40,975 nucleotides of DNA. It comes from a virus. The translations under genes and the position numbers were made by a program. The notes below the pieces were generated by a model. That model made no database searches. It was not told the origin of the DNA and worked only from the letters and a program-made list of their open reading frames with translations. Location of the stretch: IMG/VR virus record IMGVR_UViG_3300031576_000141, positions 1 to 40,975 of that record; one strand, written 5' to 3'. Of the stretch, positions 1 through 40,975 are shown in pieces; the stretch's first letter is position 1; every line of letters begins with the position of its first letter.

Positions 1-229
1 CGATACCCCGGAAACGGGGGGCGACAACAGGGCGGTCGCAGCGGATAGCCAGGCCGTGGACGGTGTCGATACCCCGGAAACGGGGGGCGACAACAGGAAA
101 ATCGCGGTCTGCTATGTGAAGGCTGCAGGTGTCGATACCGCGGAAACGGGGGGCGACAACAGGTGCGTTCAAGAATTAGCCACGGTAGCCGTTGGTGTCG
201 ATACCCCGGGAACGGGGGGCGATGACAGG
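1..229 (+). CRISPR. CRISPR-like array inside the TnpB-like frame, left copy
   Basis: Four repeats lie at 1-31 (partial), 62-97, 128-163 and 194-229. Three unique 30-bp spacers lie at 32-61, 98-127 and 164-193. The complete repeat unit is 36 bp and can fold as TGTCG / CCCCG-GAAA-CGGGG / CGACA, a stem with a GNRA tetraloop and a small internal loop. The repeat at 128 has one C-to-G change in the stem. The last repeat (194-229) is degenerate, with loop GGAA and an altered 3' side, as expected at the trailer end of a CRISPR array. The spacers share no sequence with one another, unlike a minisatellite. The 66-bp period keeps the coding frame open, each unit reading GVDTPETGGDNR plus ten variable residues. 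Compared with the right-hand copy this one has the extra unit at 98-163. Confidence 0.8.
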
Positions 230-709
230 AAACGCTTTGATGACCGCCAACACGCGATAGCTGTCGGCACCCATCAGCAGGCGATGGCACGCTGCGTACG
301 CGGCTCGTACCGCTATCGCCAGCACCGAGCCGCCAAGGCGATGCACGAGGCCAGGGATGCCGCGCGCCGCAATTGGCGGCTTCACAACTGGACCACGCGA
401 ATCGTTGCCAGGGCGGCCGATCTCACCGTCGTGAAGCCGCGTTCGATCAAGGCGGCGACCGCGACGGCGCACGGCACGCCTAACGACCCCGGCGCCGAAG
501 TGGTGTTCAAGGCGAAGGTCAATCGCCGCATTCTCGACCAGGCGCCGGCGATGGCAATCGCGATGCTGGAATACAAGGCCGCCGAGGCGGGATGCCGGCT
601 CACGCTGATCGATGCTGCGGTCCACAAGACCGACGTCCCCGCTGCCATCGTGGCGGCGGCTAAAACCGTGAGAAAGGCAAAGCACGATGTCAGCCACGCC
701 AACCGATGA
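1..709 (+). CDS. TnpB/OrfB-like protein, C-terminal part (continues from 39972-40975)
   Basis: This is the 3' part of the gene that starts at 39972; the map is circular and the frame is continuous. The first 76 codons are the in-frame repeat array. After it comes an arginine-rich helix (ARCVRGSYRYRQHRA) matching the region before RuvC-II in TnpB. Next is TRIVARAADLTVVKPRSIK, which aligns with the usual 'strLvr..dvivvEdLnvk', then NRRILD and MLEYKAAEAGCRLTLID, matching the conserved 'LeYKaewaGrrlv.vd' block. The RuvC-II glutamate is a lysine here. The CxxC zinc finger and the RuvC-III 'D.NAA.N' segment are absent; about 30 unrelated residues end the protein. TnpB proteins are RNA-guided nucleases of IS200/IS605 elements; the visible losses predict DNA binding without cleavage. 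The family is assigned by reading motifs, not by a search. Confidence 0.75.
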   Translation, partial: DTPETGGDNRAVAADSQAVDGVDTPETGGDNRKIAVCYVKAAGVDTAETGGDNRCVQELATVAVGVDTPGTGGDDRKRFDDRQHAIAVGTHQQAMARCVRGSYRYRQHRAAKAMHEARDAARRNWRLHNWTTRIVARAADLTVVKPRSIKAATATAHGTPNDPGAEVVFKAKVNRRILDQAPAMAIAMLEYKAAEAGCRLTLIDAAVHKTDVPAAIVAAAKTVRKAKHDVSHANR

Positions 710-920
710 AGTCGCCGAATTGGAGCACATGACGATGGTGTGCACCGCCATGATCGACGTGATCAATGATATCAGGGCCGACACCATCGGCCTTGATGCC
801 GCCGCCGTCATCGTCAACGCCGGCCACGTCGCCGTGCAGGCCATGAAGATCGGATTCCTGATCCGCATGGCCCGGATTGACAACCCGGATGTATTGGCCG
901 AACTGCCCGTAACCGGGTAG
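687..920 (+). CDS. Hypothetical 77-aa protein downstream of the TnpB-like gene
   Basis: The ATG at 687 overlaps the last 23 bases of the TnpB-like gene, and 'agaaaggcaaag' just before it can act as a weak ribosome binding site. The product is acidic at the N-terminus and then has a long alanine/valine-rich helical stretch (GLDAAAVIVNAGHVAVQAMK). I recognise no family. Because it is translationally coupled to the TnpB-like gene it may work with it. It is the last plus-strand gene before the convergent minus-strand block. Confidence 0.55.
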   Translation: MSATPTDEVAELEHMTMVCTAMIDVINDIRADTIGLDAAAVIVNAGHVAVQAMKIGFLIRMARIDNPDVLAELPVTG

Positions 921-32878: not shown

Positions 32879-33008
32879 CCGGCGATGATAGACGATCCGT
32901 CATAACCGCGTCAAGCGCAACCGCGTCGATGCCGGCGCGGCCGGGCAGGATGTCGCGGCAGTCGCCGAGATGCAGCTCGACGCCGGGGAAGCGCTCGACC
33001 CGCGTCAT
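32879..33008 (-). pseudogene. 5' remnant of a second DNA methyltransferase
   Basis: A frame starting at ATG 33008, overlapping the methyltransferase stop (ATGA), reads MTRVERFPGVELHLGDCRDILPG, then GIDAVALDAVMTD. This is the start of an N4/N6 DNA methyltransferase ('l..gDc.dilp.l...DaVvTDPPY'). At 'VMTD', where PPY should follow, the similarity ends and the HNH gene begins. The rest of the methyltransferase is missing from the window. The stump likely records insertion of the endonuclease with deletion of the catalytic part. Confidence 0.6.
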
Positions 33009-34516
33009 GCGAGCAGCGGCGCGTCGGCGGTAATCCTGGACTCGGCCATGTTCGCGTAATCGTCGCTCAACTCGACCAGGATCGCGTCCCGCCCGAGCCG
33101 ATCGGCGACCAGGCCAACCGTGCCGCTCCCGCCGAAGGGATCGAGACAGACGCATGGCCGCACGCCGGCGCCGCACTCGCACGACGGCCGCCAGCCGAGC
33201 GTGATTGTCTCGGAGATATCTCGCCAATGGCCGACTCCGGTCGCGCCGATGCGTTGCGGCGTCCCGTCCGTGCTGCTGCCATGCCAGCTGCCCTGCAACG
33301 GTTCCCCGTCGCGGGTGCGAGTCGTTCTAGTCTCCCGCCGCCACGGCGCCCCGCACTTGGCGCAGGCGCCCTTGGCCGATGTGCCGGCCAGAATCAGCGG
33401 CTCGACAAGCCGCTCCGGAAACGTGGCGAAATGGGCGCCGGGAAAGGGCTGCGGCGGCACATCCAGCGCCAGCGGCTCGCCATCGGCATCTGAGATCAGC
33501 CCGAACGGCGCTTCGAGCGACTGGTAGAACAGATCGCTGTTCCGGAAGTTGCGGCCGTCAGCCTGCTGCTCCTTGCGGCCCATGCGATCCCAGCGATCGT
33601 TGAAGCCGGCATGCGGGCTGGCATGGCCGCGCTGCTTGTCCGGCCGGTTGTGCCGAACCGTGTCATGCGCGCCGGGTGCCGTGTCCCAGCCGGCCGGCTT
33701 GCGCCGCGCCAGGTTTTCCAGGGCATTGCGCGCCGATCGGTTGCCGCTGTGCGGATCCTTCGGCCCGCCGGTCTGCGTGTCGAAGCTCGCCTGCGAGATC
33801 CGCGCCACCGATGCGGTCGCCAGCGGCGATCTCACCGCGACATGATCGTAGAAATATCGCGCTGACTTCGTCAGAAGGAATACATGCTCCACCGCCGACG
33901 TGGGCCGGTCCTTGGCACTTTCAGGCATCGCCGAGCGCTTGACCCAGGGCAGCATCGCCCGCAGATACCAGCCGTCTGCTTGCAGCGCCATCGCCACACG
34001 CGCCGGCATCATCAGCAGATCCTTGGGCTTGGCGCCGAAGGCCCCCGCCGTCGAGAAGGGCTTATCCCTGAATGTCCGGTCGTCGTTGCCGGCGGCTTTG
34101 GTGTCTGCGGCACTGCGGCCGTTGGCCGTGGAGGCATAGGTATCGCCATAATTGAGCCACAGCACGCCATCATGGCGAAGGATTCGCTTCACCTCGCGGA
34201 AGACATCAACCAGGACGGCAATGTGCTCCTCAGCCGTCGCCTCAAGACCGATCTGCCGGTCGATACGCGTGGCGCCACAACGGTAACAATCGCCGGCCCA
34301 TCGGCCGGGATGCGTCTTGCTGTTGCTGTGATTGCGGGTTCGGCCGGCATCGTCAGGCGCGGCGTGCGAACAGGCCGCGTCGCCGCCTTCCCACTGTGCA
34401 GTCCCGTAATCCCTGAGCCCAAAATAGGGCGGAGAAGTGATCACGCACTGCACCGACTCCGCCGCCAGCGTCGGCAGCACGTCCCGCACGTCGCCGCGGA
34501 TCACTCTTGTTGCCAT
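33005..34516 (-). CDS. N4/N6 DNA methyltransferase (beta class), 503 aa
   Basis: MATRVIRGDVRDVLPTLAAESVQCVITSPPYFGLRDYG holds catalytic motif IV (TSPPY, residues 27-31). Near the C-terminus LDPFGGSGTVGLVADRLGRDAILVELS is the AdoMet-binding motif I (about residues 459-466), so the order is IV then I as in beta-class enzymes (CcrM/HinfI type). The large middle region carries possible zinc pairs (CYRCG, CAKCG) and a target recognition region. It would modify phage DNA against host restriction, or alter GANTC-type signals; specificity cannot be read. No paired restriction enzyme is visible, so it is an orphan. Confidence 0.9.
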   Translation of the reverse strand: MATRVIRGDVRDVLPTLAAESVQCVITSPPYFGLRDYGTAQWEGGDAACSHAAPDDAGRTRNHSNSKTHPGRWAGDCYRCGATRIDRQIGLEATAEEHIAVLVDVFREVKRILRHDGVLWLNYGDTYASTANGRSAADTKAAGNDDRTFRDKPFSTAGAFGAKPKDLLMMPARVAMALQADGWYLRAMLPWVKRSAMPESAKDRPTSAVEHVFLLTKSARYFYDHVAVRSPLATASVARISQASFDTQTGGPKDPHSGNRSARNALENLARRKPAGWDTAPGAHDTVRHNRPDKQRGHASPHAGFNDRWDRMGRKEQQADGRNFRNSDLFYQSLEAPFGLISDADGEPLALDVPPQPFPGAHFATFPERLVEPLILAGTSAKGACAKCGAPWRRETRTTRTRDGEPLQGSWHGSSTDGTPQRIGATGVGHWRDISETITLGWRPSCECGAGVRPCVCLDPFGGSGTVGLVADRLGRDAILVELSDDYANMAESRITADAPLLA

Positions 34517-34644
34517 CGCCGCGGCATCCCGTTCCACAGATCGGACTGGATGGAGAACCGCGCAGCATCCCGTCTGTCTGTCCTGAGCGGGACGATCTGG
34601 GTCTCGACAATGCCGCCGACCTCAGCCCATTTGGACCGCATCAT
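34501..34644 (-). CDS. Small hypothetical protein before the methyltransferase, 47 aa
   Basis: ATG 34644 gives MMRSKWAEVGGIVETQIVPLRTDRRD and a tryptophan-containing end (FSIQSDLWNGMPRRWQQE). It overlaps the methyltransferase start by 16 bases. The frame stays open upstream with protein-like sequence (CHERCPHIFLGPAPRLRRDF) but without a standard start. It fills an otherwise empty 230-bp gap in the operon. Function unknown. Confidence 0.4.
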   Translation of the reverse strand: MMRSKWAEVGGIVETQIVPLRTDRRDAARFSIQSDLWNGMPRRWQQE

Positions 34645-36602: not shown

Positions 36603-36685
36603 GCCATTGTCGCCTGCCGGGGTCTCCTTCTGACAGGCGGCGGGCGCCGCCGACGGCCTCGAACTGTCGGCAATGCCAGGAGACG

Positions 36686-36722
36686 GGACGGCGTTCGCGT
36701 CATCCCCCCGCGAACACCGTCC
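36686..36722 (+). promoter_or_regulatory. Long hairpin in the leader of the 36754 operon
   Basis: GGACGGCGTTCGCG (36686-36699) pairs with CGCGAACACCGTCC (36709-36722) with one mismatch and a 9-nt loop. GCCGAC/GTCGGC and GGCGGC/GCCGCC hairpins precede it at about 36637-36671. The leader between promoter and ATG is about 150 nt, long for this compact genome, so RNA-level control of the operon is plausible. Confidence 0.5.
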
Positions 36723-36753
36723 TGCCCTTGGAATTGAAACTGCGGAGGTCCCA

Positions 36754-37374
36754 ATGACATTCAAGATGTACGGTCTTCGAACCGTCAACCGTGACGGCAC
36801 CAGCTACAGGGGCTTCGTCTGGCCTCTCGTCGTTGACGCCCGCGTCGAGGCTACGGACTGGGACCCCGCCGATCGCTGCGGCGGGGGGCTTCACTTCCTG
36901 CCCTGGGGCTGCGGCAACGTCAGCACTTGCGACCTCAACGATGGCGCGACCTGGCTCGTGATCGGCACCGATGACGAGGTCGTCGAAATCACCTCCGACG
37001 GCGGCGGCAAGAGCAAGACCAAATCTGCCACCGTCATCTTCGTCGGCAACCGCACGGACGCGATCGACCGCATCCGGGCGCTCGGCGCTGCCGGGAAGCC
37101 CCACATATTCAGCACCGCGACCGCCGGCGAGGGCGGCAATGCGACCGCCGGCCATGGCGGCAACGCCACCGCCGGCGACCGCGGCACCGCGACCGCCGGC
37201 CATGGCGGCACCGCGACCGCCGGCGACCGCGGCACCATCATAATTAAACGGTGGGATGAAAAGACGAAGCGCTATCGGCTCGCGGTGGGCTACGTCGGCG
37301 AGGGCGGCATCGAAGCGGGCACTGCCTATGGCGTCGCCAGTGGAGGAAGAATCATCAAGGCCGTAACAGTATGA
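36754..37374 (+). CDS. DUF7666-like / repeat-containing phage protein, 206 aa
   Basis: A GCGGAGG site precedes ATG 36754. The N-terminal part (MYGLRTVNRDGTSYRGFVWPL, DRCGGGLHFLPWGCG, ATWLVIGTDDEVVEI) resembles phage proteins with the 'GFhf...c' core often fused to pentapeptide-like repeats. Residues 122-161 are five tandem 8-residue repeats (ATAGxxGx), encoded by 24-bp DNA repeats. The C-terminus (TKRYRLAVGYVGEGGIEAGTAY) is a short beta segment. These proteins are common in phages; their biochemical role is not established. Confidence 0.65.
   Translation: MTFKMYGLRTVNRDGTSYRGFVWPLVVDARVEATDWDPADRCGGGLHFLPWGCGNVSTCDLNDGATWLVIGTDDEVVEITSDGGGKSKTKSATVIFVGNRTDAIDRIRALGAAGKPHIFSTATAGEGGNATAGHGGNATAGDRGTATAGHGGTATAGDRGTIIIKRWDEKTKRYRLAVGYVGEGGIEAGTAYGVASGGRIIKAVTV
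37117..37236 (+). repeat. Five tandem 24-bp repeats in the 36754 gene
   Basis: Each unit encodes ATAG followed by EGGN, HGGN, DRGT, HGGT or DRGT. Units two to five alternate between two types and are almost identical in DNA, suggesting recent slippage or unequal exchange. The repeat number could vary between isolates. Confidence 0.8.
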
Positions 37375-39971: not shown

Positions 39972-40975
39972 ATGGCCGATTCCGTCATCCGCCGCTACAC
40001 CTACAAGGTGTATCCATCGGCCGACCAGAAGGCCGAGCTGGATCGCGTGCGGCGGATGTGCGCGAGCTTGTACAATGCGCTGCTACAGCAGCGAATCGAG
40101 GCGTACCAGCGGCGGCGGAAGACCCTCACCTATTACGACCAATGCAAGGAGCTGACCGCGCTGCGCCATGAAATGCCGGAATGGGCTGCGCTGTCATCAT
40201 CGATGATGGCCGCAACAGCGCAGCGGCTCGACCGCGCCTACAAGGCATTTTTCTGTCGCGCCAAGGGCGGGGCCGGCGCCGCCAGCGGGTTCCCGAAGTT
40301 CCAGCGATCCGAGGACTATCCCTCGATCCCGTTCAAGCGGCACCGCGATTGCTGGCGCCTGGACGGCGAGGATAGGTATAAGAACCCGCGCCTATGGGTG
40401 CGAGGCATCGGTACCATGGAGACGCGCGGGCGATTGCCTGGCGTACCGGCGGAACTCAGGATCGGTGAACTGCTTTGGCGTCAGAGTGCGTGGTGGCTTT
40501 CTATCGTGGTCAAGATGTCGCCGCGCCGAGTGGCCGGCCAGGACGCCGGTCGGATCAACTTCGATCTGATCGACACGTTTGCGGAGGTTACATGGGAGTC
40601 TAATCCAGACCACGGCCGATGTCCGGCCGGCGCCGAGGACGCGGTTTCGGCCGCGCCCAAAGCGCGAATCAATCCTCGAATTCATGGGGTTAAGGAGTCA
40701 TCGGGTGTCGATACCCCGGAAACGGGGGGCGACAACAGGTCAGTGCCCGCTGGCGTGTCGTCGATGATCGGTGTCGATACCCCGGAAACGGGGGGCGACA
40801 ACAGGGCGGTCGCAGCGGATAGCCAGGCCGTGGACGGTGTCGATACCCCGGAAACGGGGGGCGACAACAGGTGCGTTCAAGAATTAGCCACGGTAGCCGT
40901 TGGTGTCGATACCCCGGGAACGGGGGGCGATGACAGGAAACGCTTTGATGACCGCCAACACGCGATAGCTGTCGG
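39972..40975 (+). CDS. TnpB/OrfB (Cas12-ancestor)-like protein, N-terminal part, array inside
   Basis: ATG 39972 gives MADSVIRRYTYKVYPSADQK, a TnpB start. The helical recognition region follows (LYNALLQQRIEAYQRRRKTLTYYDQCKELTALRHEMPEW) with AYKAFFCRAKGG and GFPKFQ. Then comes the beta-barrel part (WRLDGEDRYKNPRLWVRGIGTME, LLWRQSAWWLSIVVKM). RuvC-I reads INFDLIDTFAEV, with the catalytic-position Asp198 kept but the usual glycine after DL lost. INPRIHG corresponds to the 'nPr' segment after RuvC-I. At residue 245 the frame enters the repeat array and stays open to the window end, continuing at position 1. Without the array the full protein is about 400 residues, close to TnpB. No TnpA or IS ends were recognised. 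Confidence 0.8.
   Translation, partial: MADSVIRRYTYKVYPSADQKAELDRVRRMCASLYNALLQQRIEAYQRRRKTLTYYDQCKELTALRHEMPEWAALSSSMMAATAQRLDRAYKAFFCRAKGGAGAASGFPKFQRSEDYPSIPFKRHRDCWRLDGEDRYKNPRLWVRGIGTMETRGRLPGVPAELRIGELLWRQSAWWLSIVVKMSPRRVAGQDAGRINFDLIDTFAEVTWESNPDHGRCPAGAEDAVSAAPKARINPRIHGVKESSGVDTPETGGDNRSVPAGVSSMIGVDTPETGGDNRAVAADSQAVDGVDTPETGGDNRCVQELATVAVGVDTPGTGGDDRKRFDDRQHAIAV
40704..40937 (+). CRISPR. CRISPR-like array inside the TnpB-like frame, right copy
   Basis: Four 36-bp repeats start at 40704, 40770, 40836 and 40902, separated by three 30-bp spacers (40740-40769, 40806-40835, 40872-40901). The first three repeats are identical; the last is degenerate (loop GGAA, altered 3' side), marking the trailer end. 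Each repeat folds as an extended hairpin with GNRA loop, 5' of its spacer on the gene's sense strand, as in type V crRNAs. Compared with the left copy this one lacks the unit at 98-163 but shows the leader-proximal spacer 40740-40769. Joined on the circle, the longest supported array is five repeats and four spacers, 300 bp. Confidence 0.8.
40775..40975 (+). repeat. Terminal redundancy with the window start
   Basis: These 201 bases equal bases 1-267 except for a 66-bp unit (98-163) present only on the left. This indicates a circular or terminally redundant genome of about 40,774 bp and shows that the overlap is not exact because of the array. Confidence 0.85.

What the first reader, a model, noticed from the sequence alone, without database searches (positions are those of the whole stretch)
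1..229. The two terminal copies differ by exactly one spacer-repeat unit
Seen: bases 98-163 (spacer plus repeat, 66 bp) are present at the left end and absent at the right end, all other overlapping bases being identical. An internal unit is gained or lost while flanking spacers stay the same. Inference: the sampled population is mixed for array content, i.e. the array loses or gains units in nature. An assembler artefact at a repeat is the main alternative, but the extra spacer sequence itself cannot be created by collapse.
Basis: partly seen in the sequence, partly recalled or inferred. Interest (0 to 1): 0.8.

Follow-up and report, generated by a model that had tools for sequence, protein, structure and literature searches.

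The report
CRISPR-like array inside a TnpB gene
A phage genome carries a small CRISPR-like array in the middle of, and in frame with, a gene related to the gene-editing ancestor TnpB, and two versions of this array that differ by one unit were caught in the same sample; a second phage shows the same unusual layout with a different repeat.

Summary
The two ends of the contig overlap, and the only difference is one 66-nt repeat-spacer unit (98-163; equally placeable from 75-140). The ends share exactly 127 nt after the point of rejoining, the signature of a k=127 assembly graph. The contig is therefore a complete 40,708-bp circle WITHOUT the unit plus a 140-nt dead-end branch WITH it. So two array versions were sequenced; a single chimeric fragment is not excluded.

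A second phage (L009) has the same layout with an unrelated repeat, also 36+30 nt. Ordinary TnpBs lack the insert. Three bacterial relatives carry 36+30-nt arrays just downstream of the gene (type V-U-like). The phage proteins lost the RuvC-II glutamate and zinc finger, so are probably nuclease-dead.

Unexpectedly, the "spacers" encode hydrophobic 10-residue peptides in the gene's frame (p about 5e-5 over six frames), which captured spacers should not. No spacer target was found. Best reading: an intragenic array, possibly a guide array read from its own mRNA (unproven); main rival: a translated variable repeat domain.

The parts
39972..40703 (+). 5' half of TnpB-like gene: HTH_OrfB_IS605, wedge-like beta region, RuvC-I (FDLIDTFAEV, Asp kept)
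   Evidence: Pfam PF12323 E 3e-8; PHROG 506 transposase 8e-20; ISDra2 TnpB 8h1j residues 8-219, E 3e-15
40704..40937 (+). Array version without the extra unit: repeats 40704-40739, 40770-40805, 40836-40871, 40902-40937 (last one degenerate); spacers 40740-40769 (S1), 40806-40835 (S2), 40872-40901 (S4)
   Evidence: in frame with the gene
1..229 (+). Array version with the extra unit: partial repeat 1-31, S2 32-61, repeat 62-97, S3 98-127, variant repeat 128-163, S4 164-193, degenerate repeat 194-229
98..163 (+). Extra 66-nt (22-codon) unit, present only at the left end; equally placeable from 75-140
1..140 (+). Side branch (dead end) of the assembly graph carrying the extra unit
   Evidence: inference from the exact 127-nt shared stretch that follows
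141..267 (+). 127-nt stretch identical to 40849-40975: closes the genome as a 40,708-bp circle
230..709 (+). 3' part of TnpB-like gene: arginine-rich helix and RuvC-II region with the catalytic Glu replaced by Lys (LTVVKPRSI), zinc finger lost
   Evidence: residual TNB match 557-619 only
687..920 (+). Small downstream gene (77 aa), weakly similar to the gene at the same place in L009
   Evidence: 27% identity, shared MIDV and AGHVA motifs

Best explanation
Shown: a phage gene for a TnpB-like protein, probably nuclease-dead, carries an array of 36-nt hairpin repeats and 30-nt spacers inside its own reading frame, between RuvC-I and RuvC-II, and the array occurs in two versions that differ by one in-frame 22-codon unit. 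Inferred: it derives from a TnpB plus mini-array (type V-U-like) locus, and one unit was lost from part of the population by recombination between repeats. Proposed mechanism (not shown): the gene's mRNA doubles as guide precursor. The TnpB-like protein binds repeat hairpins in its own message, trims them into guides and uses them for RNA-guided DNA binding without cutting (as Cas12m and TldR do), so that processing also limits its own synthesis. The array must stay translatable, which keeps unit lengths at multiples of three and spacers free of stops.
For: In-frame continuity N-half / array / C-half; both halves align to ISDra2 TnpB on either side of the insert; second phage with the same position, period and frame across the array but an unrelated repeat. 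Repeat/spacer contrast: repeats 33-36 of 36 identical, spacers at chance (7-12 of 30). Repeats of both phages fold into two stems with an internal loop (z -3.6 and -1.8). Bacterial relatives found with the C-half profile have arrays of the same 36+30 size directly 3' of tnpB-like genes (L057, L062, L115). RuvC-II Glu lost in both phages. Precedent: TnpB makes its guide RNA from its own mRNA (PMC10278001).
Against: Spacers read in the gene frame are strongly hydrophobic (mean KD 1.27; p 5e-5 for the best of six frames; each phage alone p<0.01), not expected of captured DNA and not seen in the V-U-like control arrays. No spacer target in the phage itself or, above chance, in 50,697 phage records. 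Only two phages, six spacers. L009 has a frame break before RuvC-I. No expression data.
Confidence: 0.4

Rival explanations
1. A translated variable repeat domain: each 22-aa unit is a conserved glycine-rich turn (GVDTPETGGDNR or GADAGKSAGERG) plus a variable hydrophobic 10-mer. The array acts as protein, with unit number changing as in any coding minisatellite, and the RNA hairpins are incidental.
For: Only the gene frame is stop-free in all six spacers; hydropathy and valine content far above coding and random nulls; all units are 66 nt and in frame; codon-position GC of spacers resembles coding sequence.
Against: Repeats are near-identical at DNA level while spacers are unrelated, which ordinary tandem duplication does not produce; repeat peptides are poorly conserved between the phages while hairpins persist; AlphaFold gives the array part no structure (pLDDT about 26, shallow alignment); no Pfam match.
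Confidence: 0.3
2. A decaying V-U-like locus: array and gene collided and the gene is a pseudogene without function; the open frame is luck in GC-rich DNA.
For: RuvC-II Glu and zinc finger lost in both phages; L009 lacks about 30 residues before RuvC-I and changes frame there; chance that six random 30-nt spacers are stop-free is about 0.32.
Against: The same architecture in two divergent phages (57% and about 40% identity in the halves) with different repeats; the window frame is intact over 481-503 codons; hydrophobic spacer bias is not expected of decay.
Confidence: 0.17
3. The unit difference is a laboratory or assembly artefact: PCR recombination between 36-nt repeats, or a chimeric fragment, with only one array version in nature. 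This concerns the indel, not the array.
For: The branch is a dead end with only 97 nt upstream of the divergence; direct repeats promote template switching; no reads were available.
Against: S3 is unique sequence found nowhere else in the window; a 140-nt branch at k=127 needs several staggered 150-nt reads unless reads were merged; the extra unit also has a private repeat base.
Confidence: 0.18
4. A phage mini-array or solitary-repeat decoy that uses or blocks a host CRISPR system, unrelated to the TnpB protein.
For: Phages carry such mini-arrays and single repeats (PMC11656645).
Against: Such repeats match host repeats; none matched in 398 sampled Pseudomonadota genomes with up to 3 mismatches (host unknown). 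The in-gene position in two phages with different repeats is not explained.
Confidence: 0.05

Closest known systems
Type V-U CRISPR loci (TnpB homologue next to an array, no adaptation genes; PMC6452270), including the V-U-like loci L057, L062 and L115 found here
   Same: TnpB-like protein; 36-nt repeats and 30-nt spacers, period 66; no cas1 in the contig; unrelated spacers
   Different: In the phages the array is inside the gene and in frame; the zinc finger and RuvC-II Glu are lost; spacers are hydrophobic when translated; repeat sequence unrelated to those loci apart from a short CCCCGGAA-core resemblance to L057
TldR (phage-encoded, TnpB-derived RNA-guided regulators; PMC13418256)
   Same: Phage gene, TnpB descent, probable loss of nuclease activity
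   Different: An array of several spacers lies inside the gene instead of one guide outside it; no link to flagellin or other known TldR targets seen
Cas12m, type V-M (PMC10442227, PMC11013384)
   Same: Compact TnpB-derived effector that binds rather than cuts DNA
   Different: Cas12m arrays lie outside the gene (own knowledge)
TnpB of IS200/IS605 (ISDra2, 8h1j)
   Same: Both halves of the phage protein align to it on either side of the insert
   Different: No tnpA recognised next to the phage gene; no array in ordinary TnpBs
TIGR-Tas (PMC12045711)
   Same: Phage-borne repeat array with an RNA-guided protein
   Different: No Nop domain; 36/30 units instead of alternating 8-12-nt repeats with 9-nt spacers

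Membership tests
Type V-U CRISPR-Cas | Effector homologous to TnpB | tested here: met
   Pfam PF12323; ISDra2 TnpB E about 1e-15
Type V-U CRISPR-Cas | Array next to the effector gene | tested here: not met
   Array lies within the reading frame of the gene; in L057, L062, L115 it lies just downstream
Type V-U CRISPR-Cas | Conserved repeats separated by unrelated spacers of regular length | tested here: met
   36-nt repeats, 30-nt spacers, spacer similarity at chance
Type V-U CRISPR-Cas | Spacers match mobile elements | tested here: inconclusive
   No match above chance in the phage collection or the phage itself; IMG/VR and metagenomes not searched with spacers
Type V-U CRISPR-Cas | No adaptation module | tested here: met
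   No Cas1 in the complete circle
Type V-U CRISPR-Cas | Array transcribed and processed into guides used by the effector | not testable with these tools
   Needs RNA data
TldR | TnpB homologue with mutated RuvC catalytic residues | tested here: met
   RuvC-II Glu replaced by Lys (window) or Ala (L009); zinc finger lost; RuvC-I Asp retained
TldR | Single guide RNA encoded at the edge of the gene, with promoter targets | not tested
   No guide scaffold was sought beyond an Rfam scan of the region without meaningful hits
TIGR-Tas | Nop-domain protein | tested here: not met
   Only OrfB/TnpB domains found
Phage CRISPR mini-array or solitary repeat unit | Repeat identical to a host CRISPR repeat | tested here: inconclusive
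   No match in 398 Pseudomonadota genomes; host unknown
Coding tandem repeat (minisatellite) | Whole unit, including the variable part, related by duplication | tested here: not met
   Spacers unrelated to each other (7-12 of 30 identities) while repeats are 33-36 of 36 identical
Coding tandem repeat (minisatellite) | Unit length a multiple of three, open frame, protein-level constraint | tested here: met
   66 nt, no stops, hydrophobic spacers in frame

The most novel reading that the evidence does not exclude
One stretch of phage DNA serves twice: it is translated as part of a dead TnpB-like protein, whose variable hydrophobic peptides are under selection, and the same RNA is cut into guides for that protein. 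The array is thus both a protein domain and a guide library, and unit gain or loss changes protein and targeting at once.
Probability: 0.2. Interest if true: 0.88.

Novelty: new variant of a known kind. Interest (0 to 1): 0.62.

Why it matters
CRISPR-like arrays are thought to lie beside effector genes. An in-frame array inside a TnpB-derived gene, seen in two phages with unrelated repeats, would be a new way of coupling guides to their protein and a possible link between TnpB, which cuts its guide out of its own mRNA, and CRISPR arrays. The spacers' protein-level signature is a sharp, testable anomaly: either arrays can be made under a translation constraint, or a protein repeat can imitate a CRISPR array closely enough to mislead array finders. 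The unit polymorphism, if confirmed by reads, shows that the array changes in the wild and by whole codons.

Tried and rejected
Repeat core in IMG/VR: no other record. C-half, upstream gene and small downstream gene in IMG/VR: no further relatives; a degenerate motif scan gave two chance hits in ERF-like proteins. Spacer self-targets and phage targets: chance level. Spacer peptides against the phage's own six-frame translation: no match above shuffles; S4 was marginal (28 against a shuffle maximum of 29). Rfam: nothing meaningful. AlphaFold of the right-hand reading frame: TnpB-like N-part modelled, array part unstructured, so no beta-solenoid claim is made. Structure-preserving substitutions in the last repeat: 3 of 3 keep the fold, but 16% of random triples do too, so this is not used as evidence. 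TIGR-Tas rejected (no Nop domain). Origin of the spacers as original TnpB sequence interrupted by inserted hairpins rejected: ordinary TnpBs have no such residues there. Closest plasmid TnpBs are plain IS200/IS605 elements.

Full report
Observation. The contig ends in an array of 36-nt repeats and 30-nt spacers that is also found at its start. Bases 1-97 equal 40775-40871 and 164-267 equal 40872-40975 without a mismatch; 98-163 is the only difference. Because neighbouring repeats are alike, the unit can be placed anywhere from 75-140 to 98-163. The repeat is far from chance (7 full copies, 0 expected).

What the ends mean. Read backwards from the right end, the two versions are identical over exactly 127 nt (141-267 = 40849-40975). 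127 is the largest k-mer commonly used by metagenome assemblers of the SPAdes type (own knowledge), so the match marks a graph vertex with two incoming paths. I infer that the contig consists of a 140-nt dead-end branch with the extra unit, followed by a complete circle of 40,708 bp without it. The closed genome therefore has spacers S1-S2-S4, and S3 belongs to an alternative molecule. S3 occurs nowhere else in the window, so it was not made by collapse. With unmerged 150-nt reads a 140-nt branch needs several staggered reads; with merged pairs one fragment could suffice, so PCR recombination is not excluded. Loss versus gain cannot be decided. There is no Cas1 in the contig, which favours loss by recombination between repeats.

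The array is inside a gene. The plus-strand frame that starts at 39972 runs through the right-hand array to the contig end, and the frame that enters at base 2 runs through the left-hand array to a stop at 709. Joined across the circle this gives proteins of 481 aa (without the unit) and 503 aa (with it). The part before the array has the HTH_OrfB domain (3e-8) and aligns with ISDra2 TnpB residues 8-218 (about 1e-15). The part after it aligns weakly with ISDra2 residues 227-273, that is, directly behind, and a second TnpB-like structure, 9j09, matches 337-451 of the joined protein (1e-7). The array thus splits a TnpB-like protein between RuvC-I and the arginine-rich helix before RuvC-II. The RuvC-I Asp is kept; the RuvC-II Glu is Lys here, and the zinc finger is gone (residual TNB score only). 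The protein is probably unable to cut DNA.

A second phage. L009 (IMGVR_UViG_3300022723_000281) encodes a relative, 57% identical over the N-terminal part and about 40% over the C-terminal part. At the same position it has two perfect repeats 66 nt apart and one degenerate repeat. Its repeat is GGTGCAGACGCCGGCAAATCGGCCGGTGAACGCGGG, unlike the window's. Frame is kept from RuvC-I through the array to the end, but there is a frame change with loss of about 30 residues upstream of RuvC-I, so the L009 copy may be damaged or made as two proteins. Both genes are followed by a small gene with a shared AGHVA motif. All other relatives fetched are TnpB-like genes of about 370-430 aa (a few longer) without an insert in the gene.

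Kinship with V-U-like loci. The C-half profile finds bacterial TnpB-like genes that carry arrays of the same dimensions directly behind the gene: L057/L072 (six repeats), L062/L073 (seven plus a degenerate one) and L115 (about three, decaying); L087/L104 has a similar array upstream. Type V-U is defined as TnpB homologues next to arrays without adaptation genes (PMC6452270). The phage loci share the unit size, but the array is inside the gene. I therefore do not file them as V-U, but as a variant derived from or parallel to it.

RNA or protein? For RNA: repeats nearly identical with unrelated spacers; hairpins with the same two-stem plan in both phages (z -3.6 and -1.8); the V-U-like relatives; and TnpB's known ability to cut its guide RNA out of its own mRNA (PMC10278001). 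For protein: the gene frame is the only one of six that is free of stops in all six spacers, and in it they encode SVPAGVSSMI, AVAADSQAVD, KIAVCYVKAA, CVQELATVAV (window), LGVVRSVVSV and SLGFTFAAIS (L009). Mean hydropathy is 1.27 against -0.27 for coding segments of this phage (0 of 20,000). Taking the best of six frames for random 30-nt sets, p is 5e-5 for all six, 0.005 for the window and 0.008 for L009 alone. I noticed the bias before testing it, so these values are somewhat optimistic. The spacers of L057 and L062 show no such bias in their coding strand. Freedom from stops alone is weak evidence (about 0.32 by chance).

Targets. No spacer matches the phage itself above shuffles, and matches in 50,697 phage records are at chance level (E 0.6-8). 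The repeat is absent from 398 Pseudomonadota genomes and from other IMG/VR records. Host and targets are unknown.

Verdict. The larger finding is an in-frame, CRISPR-like array inside a probably nuclease-dead TnpB-like phage gene, in two phages. I commit, at 0.4, to a guide array read from the gene's own mRNA, with a translated variable repeat domain as the main rival (0.3). Translated CRISPR arrays are a known source of false proteins (PMC7673337); here the homologous halves on both sides and the second phage argue against that simple error. I found no description of such an in-gene array in the papers searched, a limited library.

Noticed in passing
window 141-40975: Complete circular phage genome (40,708 bp by the 127-nt overlap) that the database classes as linear, apparently because the 140-nt side branch hides the end repeat. 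Portal, major head, scaffold and terminase proteins are recognisable.
   Followed up: partly
L057/L072 5980-6290, L062/L073 6881-7330, L115 about 960-1195: TnpB-like genes in bacterial genomes with 36+30-nt arrays starting at or just behind the 3' end of the gene; in L057 the gene's frame runs on through four units. They look like unclassified V-U-type loci.
   Followed up: partly
L009 6455-6534: Frame change and loss of about 30 residues before RuvC-I: the second phage's gene is either broken, made as two proteins, or misassembled.
   Followed up: partly
window 36673-37374: Protein with in-frame 24-nt tandem repeats (TATAGHGG/TATAGDRG) and a weak DUF7666 match.
   Followed up: no
window 33008-34537, minus strand: DNA methyltransferase match (PHROG 67) stretched over about 500 residues against about 220 profile positions, suggesting a large insertion in the middle.
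   Followed up: no
L105, L106: TnpB-like proteins closest to the phage C-half (order of Azospirillum) have lost the zinc-finger cysteines but keep the RuvC-II Glu (TEAL) and a RuvC-III Asp: a possible intermediate subfamily.
   Followed up: no
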